The notes beneath the pieces are model-generated. The model was not told the origin of the DNA and made no database searches. It saw nothing but the letters and a program-made list of their open reading frames with translations. A stretch of 7,492 bases of DNA from Bacteroidales bacterium (lineage in GTDB: Bacteria; Bacteroidota; Bacteroidia; Bacteroidales; ML635J-15). How positions within the stretch are numbered: the stretch's first letter is position 1; each line of letters starts with the position of its first letter. Positions 1 to 4,338 of the stretch are shown one piece after another. The stretch spans positions 1 to 7,492 of the forward strand of contig JAGOEF010000072.1 in the NCBI GenBank assembly GCA_017997855.1, in the 5' to 3' direction. A program made the position numbers and the translations under genes.

Positions 1-1262
1 TTGTAACATTTGGTGATAGTGCTGCTGCTGTGGTAGTTAGCCGCATCGATGGTAAACAGAAAGAAGGTATTATTGATGTCGAAAATGGCGAAGACCTGCA
101 GATGATTGACTTTCTGGGAGCCAACCGCAAAGGTGATTTGTACATGAACCCGCGTATGGTAAAACGGCGTGCAGTACCCAATATTACAAACATTGCCAAA
201 AATCTGGCCTTAAAAATGAACATTACTCCGGCAGAAGCCGACTGGTTTATTCCGCATCAAACCGGAAACGCTATCGTTCATGAAGTTGCCAAAAACCTCG
301 ATATTATTCCCTGCCGTTTGTTCCAGGAGGTGCAATACAGCTTCGGAAATCTTTCGGGTGCATCGGTTCCGGTAGCTATTGCAAAGCTAAAAAGCTCAGG
401 AAGACTCAAACCCGGGCAAAAACTGATAACGGCTGTTGCCGGATTGGGTGGCGAATACGGGGGATTCAGCTATATAGTTCCCAATTTTGACGGGTTTAAT
501 TGCGATACCCGTGACCTTAAAGGTAAAACAGCCATTCTTACCGGTAGTACCGGAGGCTTAGGATCAGCCATCGCGGCCCAGTTGGCTTGCCGTGGTGCAA
601 ACCTGATATTACAGTATAATTCCGGTAACGATAAAATAAAAAACTTGCAAAAACTGCTTACACTCTATCCGGTTCAAACTGAATATATACAGGCTGACTT
701 TAGCCATTCCGATAGTGTCAAAGCCTTTGCAGAAACTATCTTAAACAAGCACAGGCGTGTCGATTACCTGATACATACAGCTGCTGTTTCGGGCAAAGTC
801 GACCGATCTTCCAATATCAGCAGCGAAGATATGCAGTTTGCCTGGCAGGTAAATACTGCAGCAGCAATACAGCTTAACGAAACGCTTGCCCCGGTAATCA
901 GCGAAACGATATTGTTCACCGGCTCAGTGGCCGAAGATGCCCAATTTTCGGGCTCATCCCCCTACGTGGCCTCAAAAAAAGCCCTGCATTCTTACGCGGT
1001 TGAATTTGCATCGAAAGCCTATAGGAATGGAATACGCTGCATTTATTATATGCCCGGCATTATCGACGGAGGTATGGGCGATTTACTCGATAAGGCGCAA
1101 AAAAATGCAGCAATGCTTCAGATTAAACAACCGGAACTGATTGACGTGAACGCAATTGCCGACCGGATGGTACGGTCGCTTTACCTTCCCAAAGTGATTA
1201 ATACACGCAATATTTACGAGAATAAGCTATTGGTACGAAAAGACGGATATTTCGCATTTTAA
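1..1262 (+). CDS. Ketosynthase III-ketoreductase fusion (gene A), 5' end outside window
   Basis: The reading frame is open to the left edge (first full codon at 3, VTFGDSAAAV), so the true start lies upstream; a GTG at 30 is internal. 419 residues are visible. Aligned with the paralogue at 2533-4338, about 198 N-terminal residues are missing, including the expected catalytic Cys. The KAS III (FabH-like) part shows the catalytic His in FIPHQTGNAI (codon 255-257) and Asn in FGNLSG (codon 348-350). From about 516 a classical SDR/FabG-like domain follows: TGSTGGLG cofactor loop (540-563), HTAA in place of NNAG, a Ser in FTGS exactly 13 residues before the Tyr of YVASK (Tyr codon 963-965, Lys codon 975-977), then a PG motif. 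The reductase therefore looks active. Inferred role: condensation of acyl thioesters followed by reduction of the beta-keto product. The substrate and the natural product, if any, are unknown. The next gene begins 4 bases after the stop. The family assignment is firm; the pathway is not. Confidence 0.88.
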   Translation, partial: VTFGDSAAAVVVSRIDGKQKEGIIDVENGEDLQMIDFLGANRKGDLYMNPRMVKRRAVPNITNIAKNLALKMNITPAEADWFIPHQTGNAIVHEVAKNLDIIPCRLFQEVQYSFGNLSGASVPVAIAKLKSSGRLKPGQKLITAVAGLGGEYGGFSYIVPNFDGFNCDTRDLKGKTAILTGSTGGLGSAIAAQLACRGANLILQYNSGNDKIKNLQKLLTLYPVQTEYIQADFSHSDSVKAFAETILNKHRRVDYLIHTAAVSGKVDRSSNISSEDMQFAWQVNTAAAIQLNETLAPVISETILFTGSVAEDAQFSGSSPYVASKKALHSYAVEFASKAYRNGIRCIYYMPGIIDGGMGDLLDKAQKNAAMLQIKQPELIDVNAIADRMVRSLYLPKVINTRNIYENKLLVRKDGYFAF

Positions 1263-1266
1263 CAAC

Positions 1267-2529
1267 ATGAAAAACATCCACACACACCGCAACAGCCACC
1301 TGCTCAACGAAATGGCTTCGCTTTTCGAAAAACACAGGCTAGCTCTTGCCGAAGCCAATAGCCTCGACAGTATGACAAATCTCGGGGTAAATCTCGATAA
1401 TGTGGATCGGGGTACAGCCACACTGAGAAGCTACGCCAATAGCGTAATTCACGAAACCCGCAGTAGCCGGGGTGGAATAGCCATATACTCGTGTTATGGC
1501 GATCCCTCGTTTGTAAGTCTTGGATTGAGTCTTGCCCCTGCATTGCTGGCCAATGGCAGTGAACTTCCGATTTTAATATATTTTCCGTCGCTGCTGAAAT
1601 CATACAGCCAACTATTTGCTTCGATTCTTTCCGAAAGCAGTACATTCAAAAATATCAGATTTGCATCGTCATCGAAAGAGTTTTTCGATATGGCACTCCA
1701 CGATGATATATTCAGTAGTCTGCTGATTTATGGCGATACATGGGTGGAACAATATCTTCCCGTGGTTGAAGAAAAGCGAAAAACGCTGCTCTATTTTGGC
1801 CCCGGAAACAACACCGTGGTTGTTCTCGACAATCATGATCTTGAAAGCAGGGCGCACCGTATTGCCCGTTTAACCTGTATTGTATCGGGGCAGGCAGCCA
1901 TTTGCCACAAACGCTGCATTATTAGCCGTGATGTAGATACCGGCAGATTTTTTGAGCTTTTACAAGCTGAATTCTTACAAATTAAAACAGGACTGAACCC
2001 TGAAACCGATTTTGTTACACCCATTCATTATCCGAGTATTGTTCGTCTGGCCGAGCATTCCATCGAACATGCGGTGACTACCGGTGCAGAGGCATGGAGT
2101 TACTCCCTGATTGACACCGTTTTCGGAACCTTGGTAAATCCTGCAATAATTATAGAACCTGATGCCAACAGTAAACTATGGCAACATTATCATTTTATTC
2201 CGGCATTAAGCATTAAGGTTGCCGAAAACTCCGAAATTGAAGAGCTTCTTAATAAAAACGAATATCCGCTGGCAGTAAGTATTTATGGAGAGAACGCCAT
2301 ATCGGCCAGGCTCCGTAACCATTGTAAGAATAATCATGCATTTGTTTTTGAGAACAGCGATTTTCTCGACCTCATTACCCCGCAACAAGGCTATTCCGGA
2401 CCCTGGGGAGGTTATGGCAAATCAGCCTTTCTGTTTTCGCCTGATCATTGCGAGACTGAGCATGGTCTGATTGTCCCGAATTATGGCTTGTTTGATTTAT
2501 ATAAAATATTCACGCACGAAATTGCTTAA
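1267..2529 (+). CDS. Aldehyde dehydrogenase-superfamily protein, possibly acyl-thioester reductase (gene B)
   Basis: This 420-residue protein is shorter than usual ALDHs (about 450-500). Motifs in order: a Rossmann-side segment GDPSFVSLGLSLAPALLANG (78-97) resembling the ALDH PWNYPL...LAPALAAGN region; FGPGNN (177-182) followed by VVVLDNHDL; SGQAAICHKR (207-216); FIPALSIKV (310-318) and YPLAVSIY (333-340), resembling the FGPV and YGLAASIF region; and GPWGGYGKS (378-386), resembling the C-terminal PFGG..KSG. The general-base Glu of classical ALDHs is Tyr176 here. The GPGN motif, lack of that Glu and Ile-Cys213 recall CoA-acylating ALDHs (AdhE, PduP), where an IC motif carries the nucleophile. 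Aligned on GQxC instead, the nucleophile position is Ala211. It could thus be an acyl-thioester reductase, an aldehyde oxidase/dehydrogenase or a non-catalytic partner. It has no signal peptide or membrane segment. It lies 4 bases after gene A and 3 before gene A', so it is almost surely co-transcribed and functionally linked with them. Confidence 0.8.
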   Translation: MKNIHTHRNSHLLNEMASLFEKHRLALAEANSLDSMTNLGVNLDNVDRGTATLRSYANSVIHETRSSRGGIAIYSCYGDPSFVSLGLSLAPALLANGSELPILIYFPSLLKSYSQLFASILSESSTFKNIRFASSSKEFFDMALHDDIFSSLLIYGDTWVEQYLPVVEEKRKTLLYFGPGNNTVVVLDNHDLESRAHRIARLTCIVSGQAAICHKRCIISRDVDTGRFFELLQAEFLQIKTGLNPETDFVTPIHYPSIVRLAEHSIEHAVTTGAEAWSYSLIDTVFGTLVNPAIIIEPDANSKLWQHYHFIPALSIKVAENSEIEELLNKNEYPLAVSIYGENAISARLRNHCKNNHAFVFENSDFLDLITPQQGYSGPWGGYGKSAFLFSPDHCETEHGLIVPNYGLFDLYKIFTHEIA

Positions 2530-2532
2530 CCA

Positions 2533-4338
2533 ATGATACGCTATTATTTTTCGGGGACAGGACACGCAGTAGCACGCTATGCGATAAGCAACAACGAAAT
2601 TGGAGCGGCTCTCGACCATTACCATCTGAGTGGCTTCAGCCATGAAAAAATTCTCGAAAGTAAAAACTACAAAGAGTATCAGCGCACCCACCCCGATAAA
2701 ACGCCGTTTGATTATTTTGCTGAAGAAAAAATGGGTTTCAGCAAACGACACCATGTTACACCATTTCCGCCCACACATAAAAAAATGTATTTTGCCGAGT
2801 CGTCGCTCGATCTGGCCATCAGGGCAGTCGAAAACGCACTTTCGGATTCGGGCACTCATGCGTCCGACATAGGTGCCTGGTTTCTGAGTACGGTATCTCC
2901 TCACGAACAGGCTCCCGGAATGGCTGCAACGCTTAAGGCCTATTTGGTTCCATTTGAAAATAGTACGCCTACATTTACACTGGCCAGCGGATGTGCCGGG
3001 TTCAATATAAATCTGGAACGCGCCTGCGAATATATGGATCAGCACCCCGAAGTCAGTAATGTTGTGATTGTTCACAGCGAAACCATGTCGGCATTTTTGG
3101 CAAACCGCATCAAATTTGTTCCTTTTGTCACCTTTGGTGATGGTGCTGCCGCAGTAATTTTAACCCGTAAACTTGAAGACAGCCGCGGAGGTTTGCTCAA
3201 TGTGGTGAATTACCATGATGTTTCGATGGTTGATTTTGTGGGCGTCGATAAAAAATGGAATCTTTATATGGACGACTCGGTCATAAAGGACCGGGCCGTC
3301 GAAAACATTCCGGTTGCTGCAATCGAGGCGTTGAAAAACACCGGTTGGTCAGTCGATGATGTCGATATTTTCATTCCTCATCAAACCGGAAATGCCATAT
3401 TGCTGCCTGTGGCCGGGAAATTGGGTATTGCACCCGATAAAGTATTTATGGAGGAACAGTTTGAATTCGGTAACACATCGGGTGCTACAGTTCCCATAAG
3501 TCTGTCGATGCTTAGGGAACAAAACCGCTTGTATCCCGGTACACGAATCCTCAGCGCTATGGCCGGAGTAGGTGGAAATTATGGCGCATTTACCTATGAG
3601 GTTCCTCAACACAAAAATAACATCAGTCTAACCCCTGCCCGCGATTTTGCAGGAACAAAAGTACTCCTTCTGGGTGCCGGAAATGCAGTAAGCCGGGAAG
3701 CCTCCCGATTATTGGTGCAGCGGGGTGCTGATCTTACAGCCGCATTATTTGGTGAAGCAACCGACTGGAAAAGAACAATAAAAGAAACGGGGCTTCGCTG
3801 CATTAATCTGAACAGGGCAGGGGCTGTTGAATCGCTATTAGCAGAAATCGATGCAGGAACAGAACATTACGATTTTTTGCTGGTTGAACCCGGAAGGTAT
3901 TCCAATAATTACGCGAATAATTTTGATATCCCGTTGAAAATAATCAAAGCTATTGCAAAGCAGAAAGCCCGGGCAATGGTCGTTGTTGGCAGCATAACCG
4001 AAACCACAGGATTTCCGGGTCACGAACTCATGGTTGCCTCTGTGAAAGCCTTACATGGGGCATTAGCTTCGGCATCAGGTGAGTTTTTAAGTGCAGGAAT
4101 ACGTATAGTGTATTATATGCCGGGCTTTGCTGAAAACGATTTTCTTGATAATGTTGATGACAATGCCCGTTTCCGCATTATGATTCATTCCGGACAGGAA
4201 CGACTGCTAAAAAGCGATGAACTAGCCCAACGAATTGTAAAATCGCTGATTATTCCCAAAGTAGCTGGCACCTGGAGCTATTACGAAAACGCCATGGTGG
4301 TGCGTTGCGATGGCTATAAACCCGAAGTTGACATTTAA
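2533..4338 (+). CDS. Ketosynthase III fused to degenerate ketoreductase domain (gene A')
   Basis: 601 residues, a full-length paralogue of gene A. Residues 1 to about 360 are a KAS III domain with a complete triad: Cys154 (SGCAGF), His283 (FIPHQTGN) and Asn314 (FGNTSGAT). The spacings of 129 and 31 are close to E. coli FabH (Cys112, His244, Asn274). The Cys sits about 42 residues later than in FabH because of extra sequence near residues 30-60. The CoA-stacking Trp32 and Arg36 of FabH seem replaced by Phe and Lys before MGFSKRHH. Residues from about 370 form an SDR-like domain alignable end to end with that of gene A, but its cofactor loop reads LGAGNAVS (380-387). Ser487 remains, while the catalytic Tyr and Lys positions are Met500 and Val504. 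The condensing half is probably active and the reductase half probably is not; it may be structural. Its start, ATG 3 bases after gene B's stop, gives a normal FabH beginning (SGTGHAV). Its stop overlaps the convergent stop of the tRNA nucleotidyltransferase gene. Confidence 0.9.
   Translation: MIRYYFSGTGHAVARYAISNNEIGAALDHYHLSGFSHEKILESKNYKEYQRTHPDKTPFDYFAEEKMGFSKRHHVTPFPPTHKKMYFAESSLDLAIRAVENALSDSGTHASDIGAWFLSTVSPHEQAPGMAATLKAYLVPFENSTPTFTLASGCAGFNINLERACEYMDQHPEVSNVVIVHSETMSAFLANRIKFVPFVTFGDGAAAVILTRKLEDSRGGLLNVVNYHDVSMVDFVGVDKKWNLYMDDSVIKDRAVENIPVAAIEALKNTGWSVDDVDIFIPHQTGNAILLPVAGKLGIAPDKVFMEEQFEFGNTSGATVPISLSMLREQNRLYPGTRILSAMAGVGGNYGAFTYEVPQHKNNISLTPARDFAGTKVLLLGAGNAVSREASRLLVQRGADLTAALFGEATDWKRTIKETGLRCINLNRAGAVESLLAEIDAGTEHYDFLLVEPGRYSNNYANNFDIPLKIIKAIAKQKARAMVVVGSITETTGFPGHELMVASVKALHGALASASGEFLSAGIRIVYYMPGFAENDFLDNVDDNARFRIMIHSGQERLLKSDELAQRIVKSLIIPKVAGTWSYYENAMVVRCDGYKPEVDI

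What the first reader, a model, noticed from the sequence alone, without database searches (positions are those of the whole stretch)
1..4338. A-B-A' operon: two ketosynthase III-ketoreductase fusions flanking an aldehyde dehydrogenase-like gene
KAS III and FabG-type ketoreductase are normally separate proteins. Here two paralogous genes fuse them in the same order, and an ALDH-superfamily gene sits between with gaps of 4 and 3 bases. The set suggests a compact condensing/reducing route (condense, reduce the beta-keto group, interconvert thioester and aldehyde) without a modular synthase. I do not recognise it as a named pathway. The motifs are seen; the family roles are established; the pathway is inference.
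Basis: partly seen in the sequence, partly recalled or inferred. Interest (0 to 1): 0.75.

Follow-up and report, generated by a model that had tools for sequence, protein, structure and literature searches.

The report
Paired ketosynthase-reductase fusions in Bacteroidales
A conserved pair of two-in-one chain-building enzymes from uncultured gut and sediment bacteria, in which one reductase half and a neighbouring aldehyde-dehydrogenase-like protein appear to have lost their active sites, and which in one rumen lineage may stand in for the usual starter enzyme of fatty acid synthesis.

Summary
The A-B-A' arrangement is real: A and A' are KAS III-SDR fusions, B has an aldehyde-dehydrogenase (ALDH) fold. 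All 304 full-length fusions compared keep the Cys-His-Asn condensing triad, but reductase Ser-Tyr-Lys is intact in 142/143 A and only 33/161 A'; the window's A' lost Tyr and Lys. B lacks the ALDH catalytic Cys (Ala in 13/13), so the proposed thioester-aldehyde step is unlikely.

A missing partner is a crotonase, directly upstream of A in 22 of 40 readable loci. A and A' usually occur once each, even unlinked. B was found only between them. The fusion is in 30/31 genomes of one Bacteroidales family but 15/393 of the order. In 12 of those 31, A/A' are the only KAS III matches, while FabF is detected in all 12.

Best reading: an A/A' pair that condenses and reduces, with a dedicated crotonase; the A' reductase and B are non-catalytic parts. 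Substrate and product are unknown. Replacement of FabH in a gut lineage is the boldest reading not excluded. Eight searches of an open-access paper library found no description.

The parts
3..1262 (+). A: KAS III-SDR fusion, 5' end cut by the window. His codon 255-257 of the KAS triad; SDR Tyr codon 963-965 and Lys codon 975-977 present
   Evidence: full-length relative P0127 with SACVGF Cys; A-type SDR Ser-Tyr-Lys intact in 142 of 143
1267..2529 (+). B: ALDH-fold protein without the catalytic Cys (Ala211, codon 1897-1899)
2533..4338 (+). A': KAS III-SDR fusion. KAS triad Cys154 (2992-2994), His283 (3379-3381), Asn314 (3472-3474) intact; SDR Tyr and Lys positions are Met500 (4030-4032) and Val504 (4042-4044)
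   Evidence: model pLDDT 83.0, best PDB matches FabH proteins

Best explanation
The locus is part of a small, dedicated acyl-thioester-building set of Bacteroidales: crotonase - A - (B) - A'. A is a complete two-step enzyme: its KAS III half joins a starter acyl thioester to a malonyl thioester and its SDR half reduces the 3-keto product to 3-hydroxy. A' supplies a second competent KAS III half, while its SDR half has become non-catalytic in most lineages, this one included, and is kept as a structural or partner-binding part. A and A' are partners (a hetero-oligomer, or two consecutive steps). The crotonase dehydrates (or hydrates) the 3-hydroxyacyl thioester. B is a catalytically dead ALDH-fold accessory protein that most relatives lack. 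Shown by sequence: domain order, active-site inventory, co-occurrence, operon structure, the crotonase partner in relatives. Inferred: direction, use of malonyl, physical association, a crotonase upstream of the window. Unknown: starter, chain length, CoA or ACP carrier, product.
For: KAS Cys/His/Asn present in 304 of 304 full-length fusions; SDR Ser-Tyr-Lys in 142 of 143 A against 33 of 161 A'; intact A' reductases lie on deep branches of A'. A' SDR diverges faster relative to its KS than A's does, 1.44 against 1.17 (27 loci). 35 loci hold complete linked A..A' pairs, B between them in 6. Of 14 genomes whose locus looked unpaired or incomplete, 12 hold two matches; 8 of these 12 type as one A and one A', in 4 the second match is a fragment that my motif did not type. 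Crotonase directly upstream of A in 22 of 40 loci, with both catalytic Glu in all 34 sequences aligned, one of them a generic enoyl-CoA hydratase. In the gut lineage the crotonase has moved but falls among the operon-type crotonases in a tree. B gives strong matches in 5 of 393 genomes of the order, each at an A-A' locus.
Against: Nothing was measured. 18 of the 40 loci have no crotonase directly upstream, and 3 of 31 family genomes show no crotonase at all at E <= 1e-10. G299 shows only an A; G401 and G402 show one match each. The matching KS distances of A and A' (r = 0.97) may only reflect shared descent. The surroundings do not name a substrate. The SDR half of the A' model was not matched to the PDB: the listed rows are all KAS III. 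The contexts of the metagenomic B proteins P0002-P0006 are unknown.
Confidence: 0.5

Rival explanations
1. A/A' primes ordinary type II fatty acid synthesis. In FabH-bearing relatives it makes a second kind of primer; in a gut lineage it has taken over from FabH altogether. (A special case of the best explanation; the odds are not exclusive of it.)
For: In the family of G008, 12 of 31 genomes have no KAS III match at E <= 1e-30 other than A/A', while FabF is over its cut-off in 11 of these 12 and split in the twelfth. FabG was searched in 5 of the 12: over the cut-off in 4, just below it in G404. FabH is over its cut-off in 175 of 198 genomes of the order. The fusion is in 30 of 31 genomes of the family, as expected of a core function.
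Against: FabH is over its cut-off in 17 of 23 and 16 of 31 genomes of the sets searched, so A/A' is not simply a FabH substitute. 18 of 198 order genomes show neither FabH nor A/A' at the thresholds used, so FabH can be missing (or missed in drafts) without A/A'. FabH-independent initiation is known: Mad malonyl-ACP decarboxylases (PMC8666670, abstract); I could not search for them. The FabH Arg that docks ACP (role recalled) is not kept.
Confidence: 0.25
2. A/A' and the crotonase make a special acyl chain that is placed on a lipid or other product by a nearby acyltransferase, apart from bulk fatty acid synthesis.
For: An LpxL-type acyltransferase (PF03279, L038 copy, 115.7 bits) and an NMO/FabK-like protein (FabK model 156-160 bits, cut-off 453) lie convergent to A' in 4 loci (L030, L034, L038, L039), with the crotonase in 3 of them; a PlsC-type acyltransferase (PF01553) lies upstream of the crotonase in L040 and L044.
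Against: Acyltransferases were recognised in 6 of 54 member loci by the queries used; no ACP was found by a motif scan, which could miss one. Near-universality in a family is unusual for a special product.
Confidence: 0.3
3. The set is catabolic: crotonase, SDR and a thiolase-like KAS III act in the beta-oxidation direction, for example on lysine-fermentation products.
For: In the six gut-lineage genomes that I fetched, and in G815, the crotonase lies near kamA and kamB (families named from the G008 copy: TIGR03820 619.1 bits, NF052386 353 bits). Many of these genomes have one crotonase only.
Against: KAS III triads are Cys-His-Asn in 304 of 304, the decarboxylating type (recalled), not the Cys-His-Cys of thiolases (recalled). 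G815 has the kamA-kamB-crotonase stretch but no A/A'. No kam genes were found within the 54 member loci: the two weak hits with kamA were in L037 and L003. The rest of the lysine pathway was not searched for.
Confidence: 0.12
4. One reading: B interconverts acyl thioester and aldehyde.
For: B has a whole ALDH fold and a near-invariant Cys two residues after the usual place (12 of 13).
Against: Ala at the Cys position in 13 of 13; Glu268 position not Glu in 10 of 13, Asn169 position not Asn in 10 of 13, Glu399 position not Glu in 13 of 13. The near-invariant Cys is Ser in L040. B is absent from 29 of 35 complete pairs.
Confidence: 0.04

Closest known systems
FabH (KAS III), the primer of type II fatty acid synthesis
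   Same: Fold and Cys-His-Asn triad
   Different: Longer N-terminal part with an insertion, no Arg where four FabH of related genomes have PHQANMR, fused to an SDR, occurs as two paralogues; far below TIGR00747's cut-off
FabG-type SDR ketoreductases
   Same: A keeps the glycine motif in most members and Ser-Tyr-Lys in 142 of 143
   Different: Fused to KAS III; below TIGR01830's cut-off (72.3 of 297.75 bits); A' has lost the catalytic residues in most members
Non-catalytic ALDH16 (human) as a pseudo-ALDH
   Same: ALDH fold without the catalytic Cys, proposed to be a binding protein (PMC8160307, passages)
   Different: B is a single short ALDH domain tied to a KAS III-SDR operon; no sequence comparison with ALDH16 was made
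PqsBC and KS-chain length factor pairs (recalled, not tested)
   Same: Two paralogous condensing subunits kept together
   Different: There one condensing subunit has lost its Cys; here both keep it, and it is the fused reductase of one partner that has decayed

Membership tests
KAS III superfamily (A and A') | Cys-His-Asn active-site triad | tested here: met
   304 of 304 full-length fusions; for the window's A the Cys is seen in P0127 only
KAS III superfamily (A') | KAS III fold | tested here: met
   Foldseek best match 2ebd_B, target TM 0.87
FabH proper (TIGR00747) | Score over the curated cut-off of 292.1 bits | tested here: not met
   A' 111.4 bits; A (cut) 71.8 bits
FabH proper | Arg after PHQAN (ACP docking, role recalled) | tested here: not met
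   Present in 4 of 4 FabH of related genomes; no Arg in 143 A; in A' the five commonest residues, none of them Arg, cover 160 of 161
Catalytic SDR ketoreductase (A) | Ser-Tyr-Lys | tested here: met
   Present in the window's A; 142 of 143 A-type
Catalytic SDR ketoreductase (A') | Ser-Tyr-Lys | tested here: not met
   Window's A' reads Ser, Met, Val; intact in 33 of 161 A'-type
ALDH superfamily (B) | ALDH fold and family profile | tested here: met
Catalytic or acylating ALDH (B) | Catalytic Cys | tested here: not met
   Ala in 13 of 13
LuxC-type acyl-CoA reductase (B) | Match to the LuxC profile | tested here: not met
   Aldedh was the only Pfam family listed at E <= 1
Primer enzyme of fatty acid synthesis | Makes 3-ketoacyl thioester and supports growth without FabH | not testable with these tools
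   Only gene inventories are available

The most novel reading that the evidence does not exclude
A paired KAS III-SDR machine has replaced FabH as the starter enzyme of fatty acid synthesis in a gut Bacteroidales lineage, doing condensation and first reduction in one complex built from one fully active and one half-dead subunit; in other lineages a dead ALDH serves as a third, structural subunit.
Probability: 0.25. Interest if true: 0.78.

Novelty: new variant of a known kind. Interest (0 to 1): 0.58.

Why it matters
The parts are familiar but the arrangement is not: condensing and reducing domains fused, duplicated, then specialised so that both copies keep the condensing site but only one keeps the reductase. 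It gives a natural series (intact and degenerate A' reductases; B with Glu and Asn, B without, no B) for how enzymes decay into subunits. If A/A' primes fatty acid synthesis in rumen Bacteroidales, FabH is not the universal starter there and FabH-directed inhibitors would miss these bacteria.

Tried and rejected
Rejected: chance adjacency (recurs in other genomes); A' as an equal ketoreductase; B as a working ALDH. A mobile origin looks unlikely, as the fusion is in 30 of 31 genomes of a family, but was not tested further. A modular or type II polyketide cluster: no ACP by a motif scan of the loci (which could miss one), and none recognised by eye among the flanking genes that I read. Left open: RpfF-like or polyketide beta-branching use of the crotonase (only generic enoyl-CoA hydratase models, all below cut-off, among the rows shown for the operon-type copies).

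Led nowhere: reading upstream of base 1 (no genome is held for the window; the cap for metagenome contigs was 0, so I did not ask). Phylum survey: 1 of 395 genomes, which is the centre itself. Papers: eight searches listed no description of the fusion; most subscription journals and bioRxiv are not held.

Limits. The loci come from two peptide patterns of one scan, so divergent relatives are missed. L055 (Pseudomonas, 26% identity) was dropped as not a member. ORFs come from a simple caller, so starts are approximate (L001's A is over-extended by it). The 304-protein set dropped sequences under 560 aa, locus sequences with unknown residues, and exact duplicates, and it descends from searches seeded with the window's own A and A'. 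A and A' types were set by the residue before the KAS Cys and agree with the two sides of a midpoint-rooted KS tree (A side support 1.0, A' side 0.47).

Full report
What is there. The window holds A (3-1262, start cut off), B (1267-2529) and A' (2533-4338) on the plus strand with gaps of 4 and 3 bases. Pfam finds KAS III and SDR domains in A, Aldedh in B and KAS III in A'; the A' SDR half is below threshold. Downstream lie a convergent CCA tRNA nucleotidyltransferase gene, a thioredoxin gene and a class 3 lipase gene, with no evident tie to A-B-A'. A 98%-identical full-length A (P0127, 624 aa) has the SACVGF active-site Cys.

Relatives. Searches with A' and A gave 317 and 370 proteins at E <= 0.001, the best 120 of each listed; B gave 6. 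A scan of the species-genome collection gave 55 loci. 54 are members, titled as Bacteroidales, Bacteroidota or groups within it, except L013, titled Candidatus Delongbacteria, whose genome (G406) falls in the family of G008. L055, from a Pseudomonas, is not a member. 35 loci show complete linked A..A' pairs; B lies between them in 6 (L001, L012, L020, L022, L040, L041).

Active sites. Of 304 distinct full-length fusions, 143 are A-type and 161 A'-type by the residue before the KAS Cys, and a KS-domain tree splits them the same way. The KAS Cys/His/Asn is complete in 304 of 304. SDR Ser-Tyr-Lys is complete in 142 of 143 A and 33 of 161 A'. Intact A' reductases sit on deep branches, so the loss is probably secondary (3 changes by parsimony). 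A' SDR diverges faster relative to its KS than A's does (ratio 1.44 against 1.17; 27 loci). At one KAS loop the paralogues differ in charge: A mostly acidic (Glu 105 and Asp 116 of 143), A' mostly basic (Arg 123 and Lys 141 of 161) at the same two columns.

Partners. A crotonase lies directly upstream of A on the same strand in 22 of 40 loci with a complete A and at least 1 kb upstream; in 10 of the 22 the frames overlap by 1-8 bases. L010, masked in part and not among the 40, also has one. Both crotonase Glu are kept in 34 of 34 aligned sequences, one of which is a generic enoyl-CoA hydratase. Of 14 genomes whose locus looked unpaired or incomplete, 12 hold two matches and 2 hold one (G401, cut by a contig start, and G402). 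Of the 12, 8 type as one A and one A'; in 4 (G398, G405, G406, G407) the second match is a fragment that my motif did not type. In the order survey 13 of the 15 positive genomes have two matches, G121 has three (one A and two fragments) and G299 only one, an A. B gives a strong match in 5 of 393 genomes of the order, each at the A-A' locus; a sixth, weak match is a 488-residue frame without A/A'.

Distribution. 15 of 393 genomes of the order have the fusion, six of them (G001-G004, G006, G008) already known, and 1 of 395 in the phylum sample, the centre itself. In the family of G008, 30 of 31 have it: 26 with two long matches (in one of them, G408, across a masked stretch), 3 with one long match and a fragment (G398, G405, G406), 1 with two fragments (G807); G815 has none. 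The window's A' groups with L001 (G001, in this family) at support 0.99, so the window probably belongs there too (inference).

FabH. In that family FabH passes its cut-off in 16 of 31. Of the 15 others, G808 has it in two pieces at different contigs, G804 has another KAS III (176 bits), G815 has nothing, and 12 have only A/A' at E <= 1e-30. In an earlier set, 17 of 23 pass; G400 has a 218-bit KAS III and G008, G190, G278, G344 and G404 have only A/A' at E <= 1e-10. FabF passes its cut-off in 11 of the 12, the twelfth (G814) being split. FabG was searched in 5 of the 12: four pass and G404 falls just short. In the order FabH passes in 175 of 198. I take 11 of the 12 to be the gut lineage that forms a clade with support 1.0 (the link of handles to loci rests partly on contig sizes and titles of rumen, yak, buffalo and deer bins: inference); G812 (L052) is apart. 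Against over-reading: 18 of the 198 order genomes show neither FabH nor A/A' at the thresholds used, and these are draft genomes whose completeness the tool did not give.

Crotonase in the gut lineage. 10 of the 12 have one crotonase match, in 9 of them away from A (G812's is beside A); G344 and G405 have none. In the six such genomes that I fetched, and in G815, it lies near kamA and kamB (families named from the G008 copy), and it falls among the operon-type crotonases in a tree. This keeps the A/A'-crotonase link but raises a lysine-fermentation rival, and G815 has it without A/A'.

Explanation. KAS triads in both subunits, one working reductase per pair, and a crotonase with both Glu fit condense - reduce - dehydrate on acyl thioesters. 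Loss of the FabH Arg and use of a crotonase lean towards CoA thioesters; this is inference.

Literature. Eight searches listed no paper describing the fusion or the set. Of the papers, I saw search listings only, except passages of PMC8160307 and the abstract, opening and outline of PMC8666670.

Noticed in passing
L116, L117, L118, L119, L121, L123 (gut lineage) and L120 (G815): The operon-type crotonase has moved next to kamA (lysine 2,3-aminomutase) and kamB.
   Followed up: partly
L030, L034, L038, L039: An LpxL-type acyltransferase and an NMO/FabK-like protein lie convergent to A' in all four, with a crotonase in three: nearly a full KS-KR-DH-ER set plus acyltransferase.
   Followed up: partly
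window 3106-3114 (A' Arg192 and Lys194) and the aligned A loop: Opposite charges at the same two KAS columns: Glu and Asp in most A, Arg and Lys in most A'. It could mark partner or carrier recognition.
   Followed up: no
window 4335-4338: A' and the convergent CCA tRNA nucleotidyltransferase gene overlap tail to tail by 4 bases.
   Followed up: no
L003, L006, L007, L009, L010, L011, L014, L016, L019, L028: A large protein of one cluster lies downstream of A' in ten loci; the L006 copy is tricorn-like (PD40, Tricorn_C1, PDZ, Peptidase_S41).
   Followed up: no
18 genomes, such as G009 and G011: Bacteroidales genomes without a FabH match at 1e-60 and without A/A' matches; whether this is real or from incomplete assemblies is unknown.
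   Followed up: no
L018, L023-L027, L036, L043, L050 (gut lineage): The gene just upstream of A there belongs to a cluster whose L018 copy is a cyclophilin-type prolyl isomerase, in the place the crotonase has elsewhere.
   Followed up: no
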